The position numbers and the translations under genes were made by a program. Shown piece by piece: positions 28,552-41,397 of a DNA stretch of 62,641 nt. Each line of letters begins with the position of its first letter. Positions within the stretch are counted from its first letter, which is position 1. Origin of the DNA: Clostridia bacterium (GTDB lineage: Bacteria; Bacillota; Clostridia; Oscillospirales; Acutalibacteraceae); assembly GCA_017935325.1 (NCBI GenBank), contig JAGBHV010000096.1, positions 1-62,641 of the forward strand, read 5' to 3'. The notes beneath the pieces are model-generated. The model ran no database searches and was not told the origin of the DNA. It saw only the letters and a program-made list of their open reading frames with translations.

Positions 28552-30873
28552 ATGGAAAAACTACAGCGCACCGCCGCTCACCGCGAAATGAGGAAAATAC
28601 ATACAGGTGAAAAAATAAATGCGAAAACTGTGCTCGGTGCAATTATAACAGCCGTTATATCCGCATTGCTCGGACAAGGCAGTCTTTTCGGAGAACTTCA
28701 TCCTTTTGGCTTTGCGATGATAATTGCTTGCCCCGGGGTTTATTCTTTTTCTTCATTCATCGGGACAAGCATCGGACTTGTTTTTTCACAGACGGGAATC
28801 TACCTTTTCAGATACCTTGTCTGCGCCTGTGCTCTGTGGATTATAAGAAGCCGTCTGCTGACACCGCATTCACGGCTGGGCGATGTGTGGTTTGCTTCTT
28901 TTGCCGCATGCTTCGGCGTATGTGCTTTTACAGGCATTGCCGTAGCATTACCTACGGGCGGTTTTGCTGACGACATTCTTATGTTCATTGCAGAAGCTCT
29001 TATTGCATCATTTTCTTCTTTCTTCTACAAAAGATGCATTGTAAAATTCACCAAAAACGAAAGCATCATTTTTTCATCAAAGGAAATTGTCTGCCTCTAT
29101 ATCAGTTTTGCAACAATTATCGCTTCAGTTGCCGATATTAAAATTTCCGCCTTTTCTCCTGCGGAATTCCTGTCATTTTTTGCAGTAATCTTTTCGGCAT
29201 ACGTTCTTTCTGAAACGGGCGGTGCACTTTCTGCATGTGTATGCACTGCAGCACTTTCCACTTCAATTTATGATGAGTATAATATTTTTCCTCTGATTTT
29301 TGCAGGAATCGTATGTGCAGTTTTTTCTCCTCTGGGCAAAATTGCATCAGCCCTGTCATTTCTTTCAGCTTTTGCTGCAACAACATTCTTTGCAAGCGGA
29401 AATTTACCTTCAGTTCAAATTCTTTCAGCCGCAATCGCCGCACTTGTTTTTCTTTCTGTCCCGAACAAAACTTACAGAAAAATTACGGCTTTTTTCAGAA
29501 CAAAAGAATCCTCCGCACTTGAAAGCACTTACAGAAAAGATGTTTCGCAAAAACTTTCCGACTCCGCAAAAACGGTCAGCACAATCTGCACGGGCATGAA
29601 CAAGGTTTCCCGAAACCTGAAAAGAATTGATAATAATTACGACAGAAATATTTTCTGCCGCGTGCAGAAAGAAATATGTTCCGATTGCGAAAATCATGAA
29701 AAATGCTGGCAACACAGTTTTCAATACACACTAAAAGGCTTTGAAGAGCTTGCAAAAAATTACCGTAAATCCCATTCACTGTCGGACACATCTTTTTCAA
29801 GAGTTTTTTTGAGCAAATGTGTAAAAAAAAGCGACCTTGTTTCGTCTCTCATTGAAAATTTCAAAAGATATGATGAATCACTCCGCGAAGAAATCTGCCT
29901 TGATGAAAAGAGAAAACTCATAAGTGACCAGATGCAATGTATGAGCGATATTCTGAATGAATTTTCACTCTCTTTCAGCAAATGCTCCCTTGTTGATAAT
30001 GAACTGTCGCAGAAAATCAAGGAAATCTTCAATTCCTTTTCAGTCAGATGCACAAAAGCCGTCTGCATTATCAACACAGACGGCAATATGACAATCAAAG
30101 CTTTCTGCAAAAAAATCGACAGCGAGGTTGACAGAAAAAAATTAAAATCACAAATTGAACAGACTGCTTTGCGAAAATTCAGTAACGCTGAAATAGATTT
30201 TACCGAAAACGGCACTGTTGTAATTTACAGGCAAAAACCATGGATGAAGTTACGCACGGGAAAAATTCAGCTTGCCAGCGATGAATCACCAATCTGCGGA
30301 GATTGTCTGCGTGAATTTGACGATGAATACGGAAACAGAACAGTTATTCTTTCTGACGGAATGGGTACGGGCGGACGAGCCGCAGTAGATGCTGCAATGA
30401 CCGCAGAGTACTTTTCAGACCTGCTTGAAGGACACATCAGCCCCGATAATGCTTTGAGAATTATCAATTCAGTTCTTTCCGTAAAATCAACAAATGAGTC
30501 CCTTGCCACAATCGACGCGGCAAAATTCAATCTCTTTTCGGGAAAGGTTGAATTTTTCAAAGCAGGTGCTGCTGTTTCTTTTGTCAGAAAAAACGGAAAA
30601 TGCTTTGTAATTGAAGGTGCTTCCCTGCCTGCCGGAATACTTCATGACATTTCCTTTGCGAAAGAAAAAGTAACTCTCTCAAAAGGAGATATTGCAGTGA
30701 TGGTATCTGACGGAGTAACAAACAATTCAATTGAGTGGATAATAGAAGAAATAGAAAGGTTCAACCATTCTAACCCTGAAATTCTTGCACAGAAAATAGC
30801 AAGCGCTGTATGCGAAAAAAACCGCGCAGAACGACGTGATGATATTACAGTTTTTGCCGGAATACTTTTATAA
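28552..30873 (+). CDS. spoIIE: Stage II sporulation protein E (membrane PP2C phosphatase)
   Basis: 773 residues. At asymmetric division it dephosphorylates SpoIIAA and so frees SigF. About ten membrane helices in the first ~310 residues, a central regulatory region with a Cys cluster (EICSDCENHEKCWQ near 375), and a C-terminal PP2C domain from about 560. PP2C metal-site motifs are seen as ILSDGMGTGGRA near 600 and VSDGVTNN near 720. Start ATG follows GAAAGGAATG. Monocistronic; promoter not convincingly identified. Confidence 0.93.
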   Translation: MEKLQRTAAHREMRKIHTGEKINAKTVLGAIITAVISALLGQGSLFGELHPFGFAMIIACPGVYSFSSFIGTSIGLVFSQTGIYLFRYLVCACALWIIRSRLLTPHSRLGDVWFASFAACFGVCAFTGIAVALPTGGFADDILMFIAEALIASFSSFFYKRCIVKFTKNESIIFSSKEIVCLYISFATIIASVADIKISAFSPAEFLSFFAVIFSAYVLSETGGALSACVCTAALSTSIYDEYNIFPLIFAGIVCAVFSPLGKIASALSFLSAFAATTFFASGNLPSVQILSAAIAALVFLSVPNKTYRKITAFFRTKESSALESTYRKDVSQKLSDSAKTVSTICTGMNKVSRNLKRIDNNYDRNIFCRVQKEICSDCENHEKCWQHSFQYTLKGFEELAKNYRKSHSLSDTSFSRVFLSKCVKKSDLVSSLIENFKRYDESLREEICLDEKRKLISDQMQCMSDILNEFSLSFSKCSLVDNELSQKIKEIFNSFSVRCTKAVCIINTDGNMTIKAFCKKIDSEVDRKKLKSQIEQTALRKFSNAEIDFTENGTVVIYRQKPWMKLRTGKIQLASDESPICGDCLREFDDEYGNRTVILSDGMGTGGRAAVDAAMTAEYFSDLLEGHISPDNALRIINSVLSVKSTNESLATIDAAKFNLFSGKVEFFKAGAAVSFVRKNGKCFVIEGASLPAGILHDISFAKEKVTLSKGDIAVMVSDGVTNNSIEWIIEEIERFNHSNPEILAQKIASAVCEKNRAERRDDITVFAGILL

Positions 30874-34839: not shown

Positions 34840-36276
34840 TCAGGGAAGCAGCAATCTGATATCATTCAGATTTTCAACAATTGCACTTGTTGAAGACATA
34901 ACAGAAGCATCCTTTGACAATACCATATCAAGAACAAGCGCTGTAAGCGTTCCTACTGCAATAATAATGAGAATCCAGATAACAATAAGTGTTGACGAAG
35001 GAATTTTTCTTTTCTGCTCAGCAGCTTCCTCCGACTGCTGGGCAATCGCAACAGAACGGGCATTTACAGAGCGTGTGCTTTCTTCAATTTTTTCAAGAAG
35101 ACTTTCAAGACCTGTTCTGTAAAGGTCTTTGTCTGTTTCATCATCTGCCGCAAAAATCTTATATACGCTTGATTTCTGCAAATCGGCAAGTGTTGCGTAA
35201 ATATATCCTGTGCCGTTTTCATCATAGAAAATTTCGCTCATTGCCACTGCATAAGCTGCATCTGTCTGCTTCAATGCTTTCCTTGCATTTGATGCAACAT
35301 TTTCTTTTCTTCTTATATCTTCCGTAAGATCTTTTTCTAATGGGAAATCAACAAAATCTGCTGCATCGGAATAAGAAACTTCCGCTAAAACATTTGTGTA
35401 AACTGCATTTTCAGTCTGTCTTACAAAAGCAATTTTAATTGACCTTGATGCAATTTTGTCCATATTGCTTTCTTCTTTTTCTTCCTTCTGAGGAGCTACT
35501 GATTCTTCGCTGTCTTCAGAAAGAGAAGAAGATGATATATCTTCATATTGGTCGTCTGCTTTTTCTTCTGCAACTTCCGCTGCTTCTTTGTTTTCAAATG
35601 AGGATGAATAAACATCAACATAATCAGACTCAGTGTTTTCTTCTTTTGCTTCTTCAGCTGTTTCTGCCTCGGCAATTTCCTCAGCAGATGTGACAACTTC
35701 CTCACGGATTACTTCTGTAATTTCTTCTGCAGCTTCCGCTTCTTTTTCTTCTTCGCATTTTTCAAAATCTTCTTTTGAATAACCTTCCGTAATGAAAGTA
35801 ATCATACCGTTTTCTATAACGGTTTCAATTCTCTTTTCATCAATGGGTATAAAGATAAGCTTCTGTTTGCCCGACTTGATACCAAAACCTGAAAACAGAC
35901 CGTCAGCAGATACAAACGCTTCACCGCCTACGGGAATTGCTGCATGTGCGTTTATCTGATTTTCATTAAGTGTTGCCATGCAAGCGTCACTATTAATGAG
36001 TTCATTTATTTTTGAATTGAGTCTGCATTTAAATCCCATTGCTCTGAAAAGTGCTGCTTTTGTTGAAATAAATTTGGAAATATCAACTGCCAGCACAATT
36101 ACATCTGCTTTTTCAATTCCATCTTTTACACCAAGGAACATTTCTTTCTGCGTTGCACAAAAAAGAAATTCTTCTTTGATTGATGTAGCCTGCCTGATTT
36201 TATTGACAATCACTTCATGAGCAACATTCATTGAAACGAGCTTGCTTTCGCTGAACGATATAAGTTTAATCTTCAC
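34840..36276 (-). CDS. Membrane-anchored degenerate CinA paralogue with acidic insert
   Basis: 478 residues; I know of no named family. Three parts read like CinA. Residues about 42-155 align with the MoCF domain of neighbouring CinA (KEMFLGVKDGIEKADVIVLA; AAIPVGGEAFVSADGLFSGF against VPKDGVVLKNNNGTAPGF), but TGGLGPTADD and LPGPPRE are lost. Residues about 165-275 are an acidic Glu/Ala insert carrying YVDVYSSS (219-226) and YEDISSSS (244-251). Residues about 278-395 align with the CinA C-terminal domain (SIKIAFV, AEVSYSDAAD), with ESCTGG replaced by VRQTEN. A membrane helix at 428-452 follows. Likely a pseudoenzyme held at the membrane. It lies 18 bp after srtB. Confidence 0.65.
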   Translation of the reverse strand: MKIKLISFSESKLVSMNVAHEVIVNKIRQATSIKEEFLFCATQKEMFLGVKDGIEKADVIVLAVDISKFISTKAALFRAMGFKCRLNSKINELINSDACMATLNENQINAHAAIPVGGEAFVSADGLFSGFGIKSGKQKLIFIPIDEKRIETVIENGMITFITEGYSKEDFEKCEEEKEAEAAEEITEVIREEVVTSAEEIAEAETAEEAKEENTESDYVDVYSSSFENKEAAEVAEEKADDQYEDISSSSLSEDSEESVAPQKEEKEESNMDKIASRSIKIAFVRQTENAVYTNVLAEVSYSDAADFVDFPLEKDLTEDIRRKENVASNARKALKQTDAAYAVAMSEIFYDENGTGYIYATLADLQKSSVYKIFAADDETDKDLYRTGLESLLEKIEESTRSVNARSVAIAQQSEEAAEQKRKIPSSTLIVIWILIIIAVGTLTALVLDMVLSKDASVMSSTSAIVENLNDIRLLLP

Positions 36277-36294: not shown

Positions 36295-37809
36295 TTATTG
36301 TGCATACCATCTTATAGCATTTTTATAGGGATTACTCTGTTTTTTTCTTGCATACCATGCATCAGGAAATTTCTGGTTGCTGTTACTTTTTGCAGCAGAA
36401 GTGTCTACTGCTTCATCCTCATCTTCTCTTACGAGCCTTGCAACGAGAACAAGTCTGCCGTTTTTAACGACATCCTTTTCGCAAGTTGAAAGAGTAATGA
36501 TTCTGTCACCTTCCTGATAATCAACACCGGTGTTAATATATGAACGGAGTCTTATTTCTTCCATGAATGCAGCAAAGTTTTCTTCTGATGAAAGATTTTT
36601 GAATGTGTAGTTGAAAATGTATCCGTCTGCGGAGGGATTTGCATCAGTGAGAAAAACAGAGAAAATTTTATAAACGTAGCTATTGTTTTCCGTGTACACA
36701 TATACATTCGGATTCGCCTTGAAAGTATTAACATTTTTATACTTTTTGATTGAGCCGAACATAGAGCCGTCTCTCATATGATGTCCGTAAATTATTGTAT
36801 TTCTGTCGTTAAAAGGAGAACTGTTGTTACAGTCAATAAAAACTGTACCGCCTACAGAATATTTTCCGCTGAAATTTTTTCTGAGATATTTACTGTTATT
36901 ACTTGTTTTAACTACAGGCAGGCTGATATCTGCTCCGGGAACAACAATCCATGCCTTGAAATCCGGATTAGCTTCTTTGAGCGCGTCAAATGTTACTGTT
37001 TTTTCTTCTTCGCTGATATTGTTGAGTTTTTCAACAATTTCTTCAGGTTTTGCATCAGGAGCTATAAATTCTGCAATTTCGCTGTTTTCTCTGGAAATCA
37101 GATACGGCTGAATAAAGTAGTCATTTACAAGCCATGCCACACTACCGATTAAAGCGATTATTGAAATAACAAAAATTATTTTTCTGATAATTTCTCCTGT
37201 ACTGCTTTTCTTCTTTTTCGGTTTTTCTTCTTCCTCTGCTTCATTTTCTGCAACAACCGGAATCTGTTCTTCTTTATGTTCCTCTGACGGAGCGCTTGTT
37301 TCTTCAACTGTTTTATTTTCAGACTCTGAAGGAATAATTGCAATAGCAGGCGGATCTGTTTCTTCTTTCACCGGCAATACTTCTTCAACAGAGGTATCTT
37401 CCTCTTCAACGGCTGCATCACTGCTGTTTGAATATATATCCTCATATTCCATTTCTTTATCACTCTGAGAATATATATCTTCATATTCCTGCTGTTCTTC
37501 AGTTTCTTCTTTTTTCTCTTCTTTTTTGAATTCAAGATTAAAAACTTCAGCTTCCTTTTGCAGAGCCTCATCGTCTACGCCTGACATCTTTGCATCAACT
37601 TCTTCATAGAGGGCAACGTAATCTTCTTCTCTTGACTTAAAGAAATCATCTATTTCACTGTCTTCCTGAGGATTGTAGAAAACCTTTTCTTCCTCCTGAG
37701 CAGGTTTTTCATCACTGCCGAAAGGCTCTAAATTATATTTTTCCCTCAGGCTTGAAAATATGTCTTCAAAACTTTCTTCCTGCGGAAGCTCCTTTTCTTT
37801 ATCGCTCAT
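36295..37809 (-). CDS. Class B sortase with long acidic cytoplasmic N-terminus
   Basis: 504 residues. Residues 1-200 are acidic and low-complexity, with FEDIFSSL (14-21), YEDIYSQS (109-116) and YEDIYSNS (122-129). A basic KPKKKK stop precedes one membrane helix (about 210-228). The extracellular catalytic domain is about 250-465: YGHHMRDGSMF with the His near 343/344, TLSTCEK with C443, and NGRLVLVARLV with R452, the sortase His-Cys-Arg triad, SrtB spacing. About 45 residues follow, basic and aromatic. Most SrtB have only a few cytoplasmic residues. Its ATG overlaps the cinA stop (TAATG), so the two are translationally coupled. No substrate with a sorting signal is visible in the window. Confidence 0.88.
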   Translation of the reverse strand: MSDKEKELPQEESFEDIFSSLREKYNLEPFGSDEKPAQEEEKVFYNPQEDSEIDDFFKSREEDYVALYEEVDAKMSGVDDEALQKEAEVFNLEFKKEEKKEETEEQQEYEDIYSQSDKEMEYEDIYSNSSDAAVEEEDTSVEEVLPVKEETDPPAIAIIPSESENKTVEETSAPSEEHKEEQIPVVAENEAEEEEKPKKKKSSTGEIIRKIIFVISIIALIGSVAWLVNDYFIQPYLISRENSEIAEFIAPDAKPEEIVEKLNNISEEEKTVTFDALKEANPDFKAWIVVPGADISLPVVKTSNNSKYLRKNFSGKYSVGGTVFIDCNNSSPFNDRNTIIYGHHMRDGSMFGSIKKYKNVNTFKANPNVYVYTENNSYVYKIFSVFLTDANPSADGYIFNYTFKNLSSEENFAAFMEEIRLRSYINTGVDYQEGDRIITLSTCEKDVVKNGRLVLVARLVREDEDEAVDTSAAKSNSNQKFPDAWYARKKQSNPYKNAIRWYAQ

Positions 37810-39065
37810 TATAATTCCTCCTGTTCCTCATATCTTCTGATTATTTTTCTTCTTACCGCATCAAAGGCTCTTGAGCCATTTACATATCTGTTATAGTCTC
37901 TGTCTTTTCTGCCGGTCATTATCTTAATACATTCTGTGGAAAATTCATCAGAAACTGCAACAAAGCTCAGACCAACTGGTTTTTCCGTGGCATCGCTCAA
38001 TGGTCCTGCAATTCCCGTAATTCCTACGCCGTAGTCAGCTTTGCCCAGGGTTCTTACTCCCTCTGCCATCTGTCTTGCAACTTCTTCGCTTACTGCGCCG
38101 TATGTTTCCAGGTCTTCTTTTCTGACACCTAAAACTCTGTTCTTTATTTCATTTGAATACGAAACAATTCCGCAATCAAAAACTTCTGATGCTCCTGAAA
38201 TATCTGTAATTCTTTTTGCAGCATATCCGCCCGTACAGGATTCTGCAAGAGCAATTTTCAAGCCATGTTTTTTCAGAAGCTTAACAAGAACTGTTTCGAT
38301 ATTTTCTTCATCAACTGCATAAACAAACTCTTTAAATCTGTTTACAACTTCGTCAACCACAGGCAGAGCTTTCTTTTCTGCATCTTCTTTTGTTTCGCCG
38401 CTTGACGTAATTCTCAGAAGGCATTCGCCATCTTTTGCATAAGGTGCTACCGTAGGATTTTCGCCCTCAAGCAAGTCTGCAGCATTTTCTGCCATTAACG
38501 ATTCGCCTATTCCAATCATTTTAACATTATGAGAAACAAAACATGCTGTAGAATATTTTTTCAATATTTCAACTGCCGATTCTTCAAACATAGGTTTCAT
38601 TTCTCTGGGAGGTCCGGGCAGAGCAATTATGCACTTTGAATTTTTTTCTATTGCAAAGCCGGGCGCCGTACCGTTGTTATTTTTCAGAACAACACCGTCC
38701 TTGGGCACATAAGCCTGACGGATGTTGCTTTCCGACATTTTTAAACCTTTACTGCTGAAATAGTTTTCTATTTCATTTTTTATATCTTCATCCAGCACAA
38801 GCTCTGTCTGCATAACTTCACAACATTTGTCCCTTGTTATATCGTCAGCTGTAGGTCCGAGCCCGCCTGTTGTAATTACAATGTCACTTCTTTCAAGTGC
38901 CTGCATAAGCATCTCCGTCAGACGGGAATTATTGTCTCCCACAACGCTCTGACGCAAAACACTGATTCCCATTTCTGCAAGCTTTTTTGAAAGGTATACT
39001 GCGTTTGTGTTAACAATGTCGCCAAGTAGAATTTCCGTGCCGACACAAACAATTTCACAAACCAA
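37809..39065 (-). CDS. cinA: CinA: NMN deamidase / competence-damage protein
   Basis: 418 residues from a TTG at 39065, picked because GGAG lies 8 nt before it and the protein then starts VCEIVCVGTEILLG as in family members; the frame opens three codons earlier with GTG. N-terminal MoCF-type domain with TGGLGPTADD near 69-78 and LPGPPREM near 152-159; C-terminal NMN amidohydrolase domain with AESCTGG near 277-283 and SYSNEIK. Both active sites look intact, in contrast to the paralogue at 34840-36276. Third gene of iscS-thiI-cinA-srtB. Confidence 0.93.
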   Translation of the reverse strand: MVCEIVCVGTEILLGDIVNTNAVYLSKKLAEMGISVLRQSVVGDNNSRLTEMLMQALERSDIVITTGGLGPTADDITRDKCCEVMQTELVLDEDIKNEIENYFSSKGLKMSESNIRQAYVPKDGVVLKNNNGTAPGFAIEKNSKCIIALPGPPREMKPMFEESAVEILKKYSTACFVSHNVKMIGIGESLMAENAADLLEGENPTVAPYAKDGECLLRITSSGETKEDAEKKALPVVDEVVNRFKEFVYAVDEENIETVLVKLLKKHGLKIALAESCTGGYAAKRITDISGASEVFDCGIVSYSNEIKNRVLGVRKEDLETYGAVSEEVARQMAEGVRTLGKADYGVGITGIAGPLSDATEKPVGLSFVAVSDEFSTECIKIMTGRKDRDYNRYVNGSRAFDAVRRKIIRRYEEQEEL

Positions 39066-39081
39066 AAATATCACTCCAGAA

Positions 39082-40251
39082 TTAATCGATTAAAATAAAT
39101 CTTGCACTTCTTACTGCTTCTTCAATCATTTCAGTAAAATCTACAGCACTTTCTGCTTTTTCAACTTCTTCAACACTCGGTCTTGTTTTCGGGTGCTTCG
39201 GAGTAAATACCGTACAGCAATCTTCATAAGGAAGAATTGAAGTTTCAAAAGAATCAATCTCTCTTGAAATTTTTACTATTTCGCCTTTATCCATGCCGAT
39301 GCACGGTCTGAAAACGGGCATATCCACTGCTCTGTCAGTGCAGGCTAAAGCTTTCATGGTCTGACTTGCAACCTGACCCAAGCTCTCGCCCGTGATAAGT
39401 GCTTCGCAGTCTTCTCTGCGTGCAATTTTTTCAGCGGTTTTCATCATTATTCTTCTCATAATAATGGTAAATAATTCTTCAGGACACTTGTCTTTTATAG
39501 TTTCCTGAATTTTTGTAAATTCAACAACATAAAGCTTGATTCTTCCGCTGTAAGCAGCAACTTTACGTGTAAGCTCATGTACCTTTTTCTCTGCAAGCTC
39601 ACTTGTATAAGGTGGTGCGGCAAAATGAATTCCCATAAGACGGAGTCCTCTTTTTGCCATCATCCAACCTGCAACAGGGCTGTCAATTCCGCCTGAAATA
39701 AGAAGTGCCGCTTTACCTGCAGAGCCAACGGGCATACCGCCGGCACCCTTGTGCTGATTGCCGTGAATGTAAACATGAGTATCTCTGACTTCAACTGTCA
39801 CAATAATATCAGGCTCATGCACATCAACAGTCAGATTCGGAAATTTCTCAAGCAGAAATCCGCCGACTTCCATGCATATTTCAGGAGATTTAAGGGGGAA
39901 ATTTTTATCGCTTCTTTTTGCATTTACTTTGAAAGTTTTTGCAAACATCAGTTCATCTGCAAGGTACTCTGCTGCAACTTCTTTTATTTTTTCAATATCT
40001 TTTTCAGTTGCTGCAGCACGTGAAAGACCTGCAATACCGAAAACTTTCTTTGCGGCTTCAAAAGCTGTGTCAAAATCGGCGTTTTCATCTTCGCTTTCAA
40101 CCATGATTGTTGACTGCGACGCTTTGAATGTAAATTTTCCTATATGTTCAAATCTGCGACGCATGTTTTTAATCATCATGTCTTCAAAAGTTCTTCTGTT
40201 AAGACCTTTGAGTGCAAGCTCACCGTTTTTTATAAGTATAATTTCTTTCAT
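39082..40251 (-). CDS. thiI: tRNA 4-thiouridine synthase ThiI
   Basis: 389 residues. Adds sulfur to tRNA U8 and can feed thiamine synthesis. N-terminal ferredoxin-like and THUMP domains (about 1-165), then a PP-loop ATPase domain with SGGIDSPVAGWMM near residue 185. There is no C-terminal rhodanese domain, as usual in Firmicutes, so the sulfur must come from a partner desulfurase, encoded 9 bp upstream. Confidence 0.94.
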   Translation of the reverse strand: MKEIILIKNGELALKGLNRRTFEDMMIKNMRRRFEHIGKFTFKASQSTIMVESEDENADFDTAFEAAKKVFGIAGLSRAAATEKDIEKIKEVAAEYLADELMFAKTFKVNAKRSDKNFPLKSPEICMEVGGFLLEKFPNLTVDVHEPDIIVTVEVRDTHVYIHGNQHKGAGGMPVGSAGKAALLISGGIDSPVAGWMMAKRGLRLMGIHFAAPPYTSELAEKKVHELTRKVAAYSGRIKLYVVEFTKIQETIKDKCPEELFTIIMRRIMMKTAEKIARREDCEALITGESLGQVASQTMKALACTDRAVDMPVFRPCIGMDKGEIVKISREIDSFETSILPYEDCCTVFTPKHPKTRPSVEEVEKAESAVDFTEMIEEAVRSARFILID

Positions 40252-40260
40252 AATTACCTC

Positions 40261-41397
40261 TTAAACTTTTCTCAGATTTTTCAATGCACAGCAGATATTT
40301 TCTCTCAAAATATCAAGCTCTTCTTTTGTGTTGAATCGTGACAGACTTACTCTTATTGCGCTGTCAATTCTCTCATTTGAAAGTCCTGCATTCAGCAGAG
40401 TAGTGCTTCTGTGTCCTTTTGCACATGCTGAACCGCCTGAAACATAAATCTCTCTTTCAGACAGATAATTTATCATCGGTTGAGACGGAATTCCCAAAAC
40501 GGAAAAATTAACAATATAAGGAAGTGCTTCTTTCCCTGAATTTATAACAACACCGTCAATCTTCTGCAGATTTTCCACAAATTCATTGCGCAACCAGGTA
40601 GTTCTTTCAAGATTTTTTTCAATCTCCGTTATCTCTTCTGCCGCTGCAGCAAAACCGCATATTGCGGGCATAGCCTCAGTACCTGAGCGCAGACCCTTTT
40701 CCTGACCGCCACCGTAAACGGGCGAATTTATCTGAACACCTTTTCTGACAAACAATGCACCGGCACCTTTGGGACCGTGAATTTTATGGGAGCTGATGCT
40801 CATTAAATCCACACCGAGCTTCTGCACCTTTATCGGCAGTTTTCCGAAACCCTGCACAGCATCGCAATGGATAAGTGCAGGCGACTTTTTCATCATTACT
40901 GCTTTTTTTATAAGCTCAACCGGATTTATTGAACCTAATTCATTATTGACCAACATAACGCTGATAAGTATTGTTTTTTCATCAATCTGTGCAATCAAAT
41001 CCTGAATATTGATGCTGCCGTTTTCACCGACAGGAAGCCTTATCACTTCGAAGCCCTTATTTTCAAGTGCCTTCATTGCGTTTTCAACACTGGGGTGTTC
41101 AGAGGATGAAGTAATAATTTTCTTGCCTCTTCTTGAAAGCTTTTCTGCAGCACCGAAAATAGCGATATTATTGCTTTCTGTTCCGCCTGATGTAAAGAAA
41201 ATTTCATCTTCACGGGCTGAAATCTTCTCCGCAATAATTTTTCTCGCTTTGTCAAGTTCATCTTTTGCAATAACACCAAGGTGATGTATGGAGGATGGGT
41301 TTGCCCAGCATTCATCAAGCATATATGCAATTTTTTTCTTTGCACTTTCGCACAAAGGTGTTGTTGCACTATTGTCAAGATAAATCGCCAAAGCCAT
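40261..41397 (-). CDS. Cysteine desulfurase (IscS/NifS-like, ThiI partner)
   Basis: 378 residues. PLP enzyme that takes sulfur from cysteine. N-terminus IYLDNSATTP; PLP lysine in SSHKIHGPKGAG near 204; active Cys in GGSACAKGHRS near 328, on a short loop as in group II NifZ/ThiI partner types. No scaffold gene (iscU) is adjacent, so it most likely serves ThiI (inference from the operon). First gene of the six-gene operon ending at 34053. Confidence 0.92.
   Translation of the reverse strand: MALAIYLDNSATTPLCESAKKKIAYMLDECWANPSSIHHLGVIAKDELDKARKIIAEKISAREDEIFFTSGGTESNNIAIFGAAEKLSRRGKKIITSSSEHPSVENAMKALENKGFEVIRLPVGENGSINIQDLIAQIDEKTILISVMLVNNELGSINPVELIKKAVMMKKSPALIHCDAVQGFGKLPIKVQKLGVDLMSISSHKIHGPKGAGALFVRKGVQINSPVYGGGQEKGLRSGTEAMPAICGFAAAAEEITEIEKNLERTTWLRNEFVENLQKIDGVVINSGKEALPYIVNFSVLGIPSQPMINYLSEREIYVSGGSACAKGHRSTTLLNAGLSNERIDSAIRVSLSRFNTKEELDILRENICCALKNLRKV

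What the first reader, a model, noticed from the sequence alone, without database searches (positions are those of the whole stretch)
34840..36276. A membrane-anchored, catalytically dead copy of CinA next to cinA and sortase B
The 478-residue protein aligns by eye with both domains of the CinA encoded two genes upstream. MoCF part: KEMFLGVKDGIEKADVIVLA matches TEMLMQALERSDIVITTGG, and AAIPVGGEAFVSADGLFSGF matches AYVPKDGVVLKNNNGTAPGF. C-terminal part: SIKIAFV and EVSYSDAAD match LKIALAE and IVSYSNEIK. The active motifs TGGLGPTADD, LPGPPRE and ESCTGG are gone, about 110 acidic residues are inserted between the domains, and a membrane helix is added at 428-452. A duplicated, disarmed and membrane-tethered CinA in a sortase operon suggests a new regulatory or scaffold role. 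I know of no description.
Basis: partly seen in the sequence, partly recalled or inferred. Interest (0 to 1): 0.78.

Follow-up and report, generated by a model that had tools for sequence, protein, structure and literature searches.

The report
Membrane-anchored dead CinA beside sortase B
A gut bacterium carries an apparently inactive, membrane-bound relative of the NAD-recycling enzyme CinA beside a cell-wall sortase, and some relatives fuse such domains to sortases and wall-cutting enzymes, pointing to an undescribed link between a cytoplasmic enzyme fold and wall assembly.

Summary
Profile-profile comparison ties residues 1-166 to CinA's MoCF domain (E=1.2e-16) and 272-405 to its PncC domain (E=8.7e-15); cross-comparisons are null. 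The KH domain is absent. Published catalytic residues of both domains are not conserved in the family, while another set is. The N domain is under clear constraint, the C domain less. One transmembrane helix follows, predicted N-inside.

It is no recent copy: 77 pseudo-MoCF domains lie on one side of a branch (98% SH-aLRT) from 54 CinA rows. 67 of 250 family genomes carry it. In 67 distinct loci a sortase gene lies upstream in 66, cinA or pncC in 59.

The larger finding lies outside the window. About half of the homologues (34 of 70) continue outside the membrane as a SpoIID-like peptidoglycan-cleaving domain. Divergent relatives fuse CinA-TM-SortaseB, CinA-TM-SortaseB-SpoIID or pseudoMoCF-TM-SortaseB-SpoIID in one chain. 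I read the window protein as the cytoplasmic scaffold or sensor arm of a CinA/sortase/SpoIID wall machine, in a version without SpoIID. Homology and linkage are shown; topology is predicted; interaction and function are inferred. No structure model was obtained.

The parts
34840..36276 (-). 478-aa membrane-anchored pseudo-CinA (whole ORF, GTG start, stop included)
   Evidence: homologues
35779..36276 (-). residues 1-166: degenerate MoCF (COG1058-like) domain; K73, P115, DGLFSGF 125-131, D146 and R149 are conserved in the family to differing degrees
35464..35778 (-). residues 167-271: acidic, fast-evolving linker (41 of 105 residues D or E)
35062..35463 (-). residues 272-405: degenerate PncC (NMN deamidase-like) domain
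34933..34989 (-). residues 430-448: single transmembrane helix by hydropathy, predicted N-in C-out
34843..34932 (-). residues 449-478: short C-terminal tail, in the place where about half of the homologues carry a SpoIID-like domain
36295..37809 (-). class B sortase with a roughly 210-residue acidic cytoplasmic tail; catalytic H, C, R present
37809..39074 (-). canonical CinA (MoCF-KH-PncC) with the active-site residues present
39082..41397 (-). thiI-like and nifS-like genes that precede cinA here and in many homologous loci (gene names are recalled, not scanned)

Best explanation
It is a single-pass membrane protein whose cytoplasmic part is an old, catalytically disarmed relative of CinA: MoCF-like domain, acidic linker, PncC-like domain, no KH. 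It most likely serves as the cytoplasmic sensor or scaffold arm of a wall machine built around sortase B. The pseudo-CinA module holds or senses something on the inside: CinA or PncC itself, the sortase's disordered acidic tail, or a nucleotide in the reworked pocket. Through the helix it positions or gates the extracytoplasmic enzyme. In about half of the homologues that enzyme, SpoIID, is on the same chain; in the window's genus there is no SpoIID end, and sortase B in the same gene cluster is the candidate partner. Shown: homology to both CinA domains, loss of catalytic residues, conserved linkage, and fusions of CinA and pseudo-CinA modules with sortase B and SpoIID in relatives. Predicted: topology. 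Inferred: physical association, sensing or scaffolding, effect on wall enzymes.
For: Domain homology: hhalign, MoCF E=1.2e-16, PncC E=8.7e-15, cross-controls null. The pseudo-PncC profile finds only itself and the PncC region of CinA in the whole own genome at E<=10 (0.0038 for CinA). The pseudo-MoCF profile finds itself and CinA (E=2.3e-10) in the own genome, and the CinA structure 6mr3 is its best of 177,635 PDB sequences (E=3.1e-4, next 0.49). Disarmed: CinA E14, D47, G70, D78 (20 of 20) and S279, K311, R392 (37 of 37) correspond to S, A, V, I and Q, D, D in the window protein; the old residue is kept in 6, 8, 0, 0 and 4, 3, 0 of 43 sequences. Another set is kept: K73 in 43 of 43, D146 in 34, R149 in 31. 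Constraint: window against L071, dN and dS 0.114 and 0.95 for N, 0.167 and 1.12 for C, 0.534 and 1.39 for the linker. Topology: more K/R before the helix in 75 of 79. Linkage: sortase upstream in 66 of 67 distinct loci, within 153 bases in 64; cinA in 32 and pncC alone in 27. Fusions: 14 CinA-TM-Srt, 2 CinA-TM-Srt-SpoIID and 4 pMoCF-TM-Srt-SpoIID ORFs.
Against: No interaction, localisation or structural data; adjacency and fusion do not prove contact in this species. Pfam recognises the N domain in 0 of 41 members and the C domain in 7 of 40. The pseudo-PncC profile against PDB returns designed repeat proteins, not PncC. The C domain is less constrained in other pairs: dN and dS 0.492 and 1.1 against L072, 0.31 and 0.86 against L073. 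In a wider set K73 is conserved in 90% or more, not in every row. In 14 family genomes chosen because no homologue had been found, sortase matched in 14 and CinA in 13, so the protein as such is not obligatory. The sensing idea rests only on conserved positions.
Confidence: 0.58

Rival explanations
1. Cytoskeletal scaffold like actinobacterial Glp or gephyrin: the pseudo-enzyme binds FtsZ or another cytoplasmic polymer and recruits sortase B (and SpoIID where present) to the septum; no small ligand is involved.
For: MoeA, which has a domain superposable on COG1058 (PMC3680494, passages), was repurposed as Glp, which binds FtsZ and a membrane receptor, GlpR (PMC10522489, passages). A SpoIID homologue acts at the chlamydial division septum (PMC6635528, passages). 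The sortase tails are long, acidic and in part carry a recurring motif.
Against: No FtsZ-binding feature was tested. Conserved positions in the reworked N domain hint at something beyond a passive scaffold, though a binding surface could explain them.
Confidence: 0.25
2. Regulatory partner of CinA/PncC: the pseudo-PncC domain forms mixed dimers with active CinA or the PncC-only enzyme and holds NMN deamidase at the membrane; the sortase link is incidental.
For: PncC is a dimer in which one substrate-binding residue comes from the other subunit (PMC5384747, passages). cinA or pncC is upstream in 59 of 67 loci.
Against: Fusions with SpoIID and sortase are unexplained. Several relatives keep only the pseudo-MoCF part (pMoCF-TM, pMoCF-TM-Srt-SpoIID).
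Confidence: 0.1
3. An enzyme with new chemistry: the old catalytic residues were replaced by a new set (K73, D125, D146, R149).
For: These positions are strongly conserved.
Against: The acidic triad and the Ser/Lys pair needed by the known reactions are not kept, and no new catalytic set is evident.
Confidence: 0.05
4. Chance: an ordinary acidic membrane protein whose resemblance to CinA is accidental.
For: Single-sequence searches are negative.
Against: Two independent domain matches in order with null controls, genome-wide recovery of CinA and PDB recovery of CinA by the N profile.
Confidence: 0.02

Closest known systems
CinA (COG1058-KH-PncC; NF001813, PF00994, PF18146, PF02464)
   Same: Both outer domains are homologous by profile, in the same order.
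   Different: No KH domain, catalytic residues not kept, acidic linker, predicted transmembrane helix, often a SpoIID-like domain.
Glp/GlpR and gephyrin (repurposed MoeA)
   Same: A cofactor-pathway enzyme fold with a MoCF-type domain reused at the membrane, its gene next to that of a membrane partner (PMC10522489, passages read).
   Different: Derived from CinA, not MoeA; carries its own membrane helix and is linked to sortase and SpoIID; partner binding unknown.
SpoIID (PF08486)
   Same: About half of the homologues end in a SpoIID-like domain (34 of 70 by signature; Pfam 13 of 43).
   Different: The window protein has none; I know of no described SpoIID protein with a pseudo-CinA part (recall).
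Class B sortase (TIGR03064)
   Same: Neighbour in the cluster and fusion partner in relatives.
   Different: Described SrtB proteins, as I recall them, lack a CinA module; here CinA or pseudo-MoCF is fused in front of the helix in some relatives.

Membership tests
CinA (NMN deamidase / ADP-ribose pyrophosphatase) | Match to PF00994 and PF02464 above cut-off | tested here: not met
   neither reported for the window protein; PF00994 in 0 of 41 N domains at E<=1; PF02464 in 7 of 40 C domains at E<=1, best 4.8e-4
CinA (NMN deamidase / ADP-ribose pyrophosphatase) | Homology of both outer domains | tested here: met
   (E=1.2e-16 and 8.7e-15, null controls); (C profile against PDB) does not add support
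CinA (NMN deamidase / ADP-ribose pyrophosphatase) | Central KH domain | tested here: not met
   no KH match; an acidic linker stands in its place
CinA (NMN deamidase / ADP-ribose pyrophosphatase) | COG1058 acidic triad and GG motif (PMC3680494) | tested here: not met
   E14, D47, D78, G70 correspond to S, A, I, V; E14, D47, D78, G70 kept in 6, 8, 0, 0 of 43
CinA (NMN deamidase / ADP-ribose pyrophosphatase) | PncC Ser/Lys pair and phosphate-binding Arg (PMC5384747) | tested here: not met
   S279, K311, R392 correspond to Q, D, D; kept in 4, 3, 0 of 43. The alignment around K311 is gapped and less sure
CinA (NMN deamidase / ADP-ribose pyrophosphatase) | Enzyme activity | not testable with these tools
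   needs an assay
Glp / gephyrin-like scaffold | MoeA-type architecture | tested here: not met
   no MoeA model reported for this protein; homology is to CinA
Glp / gephyrin-like scaffold | Binding to FtsZ and to a membrane receptor | not testable with these tools
   needs pull-down or localisation
SpoIID | SpoIID domain (PF08486) | tested here: not met
   absent in the window protein; 13 of 43 members match at E<=0.01
Class B sortase (neighbour) | TIGR03064 above cut-off and catalytic H, C, R | tested here: met
   180.8 bits against 153.75; HCR

The most novel reading that the evidence does not exclude
Oscillospirales, above all the window's family, possess an undescribed transmembrane wall machine in which a CinA-type nucleotide-handling module, active or disarmed, sits in the cytoplasm and controls class B sortase and SpoIID glycan cleavage outside. 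The same modules occur as separate genes or as single chains (CinA-TM-SortaseB-SpoIID), and the window protein is its pseudo-enzyme subunit. This would couple NAD by-product status, or a cytoplasmic scaffold, directly to wall anchoring and cleavage.
Probability: 0.4. Interest if true: 0.9.

Novelty: new variant of a known kind. Interest (0 to 1): 0.75.

Why it matters
CinA is known as an NAD-recycling enzyme associated with natural competence (PMC4246079, abstract) and, in one pathogen, with drug tolerance (PMC9033802, search listing only). A family in which its fold is disarmed, apparently anchored in the membrane and linked, in relatives even fused, to sortase B and a peptidoglycan-cleaving domain gives a concrete reason to look for CinA at the cell envelope, and the natural fusions make a direct test possible. 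For sortases it would be, as far as I know, a first sign of a cytoplasmic control arm in class B enzymes of gut Clostridia.

Tried and rejected
Single-sequence searches: Pfam, NCBIfam and PDB gave nothing useful for the window protein. The weak AA_permease match covers the membrane helix and was rejected. Pseudo-PncC against PDB: best hits are designed repeat proteins over about 34 residues; I reject them as composition, and PDB therefore does not confirm the C domain. One further profile comparison, pseudo-PncC against the own CinA's MoCF stretch, was a negative control and came out null. Sortase inactivity as a rule of these clusters: rejected, 97 of 113 sortase ORFs keep H, C and R (the 113 include near-identical copies of shared contigs and truncated ORFs). 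Recent duplication of the window's own cinA: not supported by the tree. A co-occurrence statistic was not attempted, because divergent pseudo-MoCF proteins blur presence and absence. Literature: searches (CinA, sortase, SpoIID in combinations) returned no paper; one returned 140 of which 8 were listed, none on this by title; one returned 7, none on this by title. Of these I read one passage of PMC4877998, which names a SpoIID-like protein among four potential sortase substrates of Clostridium acetobutylicum. Subscription journals and preprints are not held.

Caveats on counts: L031-L070 are 40 places out of the 71 genomes matched; L071-L108 are the 38 loci. Of the 8 loci without cinA or pncC, six are at or near a contig end (L034, L059, L065, L073, L085, L099); in L067 and L108 it was not found in what was fetched. 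L122-L152 were chosen because they looked divergent or had no match, so fusion counts there are not frequencies.

Full report
The gene. The ORF at 34840-36276 (minus strand, GTG start, 478 aa) follows cinA and srtB on the same strand, with thiI-like and nifS-like genes (names recalled) before cinA. cinA and srtB overlap by one base, and 18 bases separate srtB from this gene. The protein has one strongly hydrophobic stretch, residues 430-448, and an acidic linker at 167-271 with 41 D or E in 105 residues.

Is the resemblance to CinA real? On the single sequence one cannot say: Pfam, NCBIfam and PDB find nothing above cut-off, and BLASTP with the neighbouring CinA gives E=0.037 over 45 residues. 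Homologues changed that. A search of 250 genomes of the family found matches in 71 at E<=0.01, some of them weak and partly in the acidic linker. A profile of the N domain found 67 of 250 at E<=1e-13. From 43 sequences I built profiles of the two cytoplasmic domains and compared them with profiles of MoCF (20 sequences), KH (20) and PncC (37) from CinA genes in the same loci. N against MoCF: probability 98.8, E=1.2e-16. C against PncC: probability 98.4, E=8.7e-15. N against PncC or KH, C against MoCF or KH, and both against ThiI and NifS gave probabilities of 3.1 or less. Other checks agree in part. Searched against the whole own genome, the C-domain profile returns two places at E<=10, itself and the PncC part of CinA (E=0.0038); the N-domain profile returns itself and CinA (E=2.3e-10). 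Outside the family, the seven N-profile hits whose coordinates I compared lie inside CinA genes (G259, G265, G266, G287, G304, G307, G332). Against 177,635 PDB sequences the N profile's best hit is the CinA structure 6mr3 (E=3.1e-4; next 0.49). The C profile does not find PncC in PDB. Pfam sees CinA in 7 of 40 C domains and MoCF in 0 of 41 N domains. So the assignments rest on profile comparison.

Disarmed. COG1058 activity needs an acidic triad, beside a GG motif (PMC3680494, passages read); PncC needs Ser, Lys and a phosphate-binding Arg (PMC5384747, passages read; PMC4246079, abstract and passages read, gives a differing mechanism). At the aligned positions CinA keeps E14, D47, G70, D78 in 20 of 20 and S279, K311, R392 in 37 of 37. 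The window protein has S, A, V, I and Q, D, D. Among the 43, the old residue is kept in 6, 8, 0, 0 and 4, 3, 0; at the S279 position 29 have T. Alignment near K311 is gapped and less sure. Another set is conserved in the N domain: K73 in 43 of 43, an aromatic residue at 69 in 43 of 43, D146 in 34 and R149 in 31. In a wider set of 49, K73, P115, G130 and P144 are at 90% or more, none invariant.

Maintained. Window against its nearest relative found (L071): dN and dS 0.114 and 0.95 (N), 0.167 and 1.12 (C), 0.534 and 1.39 (linker), against 0.125 and 1.5 for CinA. Other pairs are less favourable for the C domain: 0.492 and 1.1 against L072, 0.31 and 0.86 against L073, while N gives 0.169 and 1.82, 0.239 and 1.65. 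The N domain is clearly constrained; the C domain less, and in some pairs about as fast as the linker. dS near or above 1 makes all these ratios rough.

Topology. In 79 sequences with a detected helix (from the 43 and those, some from shared contigs; those without a helix dropped), lysine and arginine average 4.4 in the 15 residues before it and 1.0 after it, and the N side is richer in 75. Hydropathy shows no other hydrophobic stretch in the window protein; no signal-peptide program was run. The pseudo-CinA part should thus be cytoplasmic.

Neighbourhood. In 67 distinct homologous loci a sortase ORF lies upstream on the same strand in 66 (the exception starts at a contig end), within 153 bases in 64 of these. 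A full cinA is upstream in 32 and a PncC-only gene in 27, so 59 of 67; of the other eight, six are at or near a contig end. Ninety-seven of 113 sortase ORFs keep the catalytic H, C and R.

What lies outside the membrane. Of 70 proteins (69 homologues in these loci and the window's), 34 have a SpoIID signature after the helix; Pfam recognises SpoIID in 13 of 43 at E<=0.01. Among 38 distinct SpoIID-like regions in the fetched ORFs of 500 aa or more, 34 have a glutamate of the catalytic type and 35 the GxGxGVGMSQ block (which glutamate is catalytic is recalled). SpoIID degrades peptidoglycan in engulfment with a catalytic glutamate (PMC6221140, passages read), and a homologue is septal in a Chlamydia relative (PMC6635528, abstract and passages read). 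The window protein and its closest relatives (L031, L032, L071, L073, L074) lack the domain; whether it was lost or never gained there is open. The genome holds three other SpoIID ORFs.

Fusions. Relatives in L122-L152, chosen as divergent or unmatched and so not a frequency sample, show single chains: CinA-TM-SortaseB in 14 ORFs, CinA-TM-SortaseB-SpoIID in 2 (L135, L147) and pseudoMoCF-TM-SortaseB-SpoIID in 4 (L127, L128, L130, L133). In L132 and L134 the CinA part is itself degenerate (PncC E=9e-4 and 4e-4). Four further sortases (L148-L150, L152) begin with a MoCF-like stretch that as a group matches CinA MoCF (E=1.5e-7, controls null, no match to the pseudo-MoCF profile). Downstream of sortase in several genomes without the full protein there is a short MoCF-like ORF (profile support in L148, L151, L152; by eye in L143, L145, L150; none seen in L144 among ORFs of 150 aa or more). 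In the printed rows of the order-wide CinA search, three matches lie in frames over 600 aa (G050, G285, G299), and none in the printed rows of the class-wide search; both lists are cut. The fusion thus looks confined to a few lineages.

Origin. A quick maximum-likelihood tree of 131 MoCF-type domains puts the 77 that score better with the pseudo model on one side of a branch (SH-aLRT 98) from the 54 that score better with the CinA model. The two labels were given by profile score, so this is not an independent test, and the program warns of long branches meeting at this very split. CinA-sortase fusion takes 5 changes on the tree (at least 3 forced), SpoIID presence 12.

How it probably works. 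The recurring theme is a CinA-type module inside and a sortase or SpoIID outside, joined by one helix, on one chain or in neighbouring genes. The economical reading is one complex, with the pseudo-CinA subunit as holder or sensor. A possible contact on the sortase side is its long acidic tail (mean D+E 21%) with a motif like FEELLKKY, found in 26 of 64 distinct tails against a shuffled mean of 0.2 and maximum of 2; the pattern was tuned on these tails. The nearest functional precedent is Glp, a repurposed MoeA that binds FtsZ and a membrane receptor (PMC10522489, passages read). That is 'works like', not membership.

Known or new. Five open-access searches around CinA, sortase and SpoIID showed no description in what was listed; one listed 8 of 140. 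One paper notes a SpoIID-like protein among potential sortase substrates of Clostridium acetobutylicum (PMC4877998, one passage read). A contig-length match links the family with Candidatus Limimonas, which NCBI files under Acutalibacteraceae; that the window's family is Acutalibacteraceae is an inference. I file the protein as a CinA-derived pseudo-enzyme, not as a CinA, and the system as a new variant with a fair chance of being a new kind of wall machine.

Noticed in passing
36298-37809 (sortase B) and homologous sortases: Long acidic cytoplasmic tails carry a recurring motif (window: FEDIFSSLREKYNLE); 26 of 64 distinct tails match a pattern that shuffled tails match 0.2 times on average. 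The pattern was tuned on the same data.
   Followed up: partly
36298-37809 and 35464-35778: The sortase tail (EYEDIYSQSD, EYEDIYSNSS) and the linker of the pseudo-CinA (YVDVYSSSF, QYEDISSSSL) share a short motif; the pattern used was found only in the window's genus loci among those scanned.
   Followed up: no
L041, L042, L049, L055, L066, L081, L099, L104: A few sortases in the same cluster lack catalytic His and/or Cys, so pseudo-sortases occur beside pseudo-CinA (L104 and L055 are the same contig by length).
   Followed up: partly
27 of 67 homologous loci, e.g. L039-L043: The cinA gene is reduced to its PncC domain while the pseudo-CinA with its MoCF-like part is kept.
   Followed up: partly
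L048 and L053: Two pseudo-CinA genes in tandem, only the second with a SpoIID signature.
   Followed up: no
L148-L150: Sortases with a MoCF-like N-terminus and Ig-like (BIG2-like, recalled) repeats at the C-terminus.
   Followed up: partly
28552-30870: ORF that looks like SpoIIE (recalled from its sequence, not scanned), suggesting sporulation genes in this genome.
   Followed up: no
G000:C44:2925-3272 (L121): A second, shorter sortase elsewhere in the genome.
   Followed up: no
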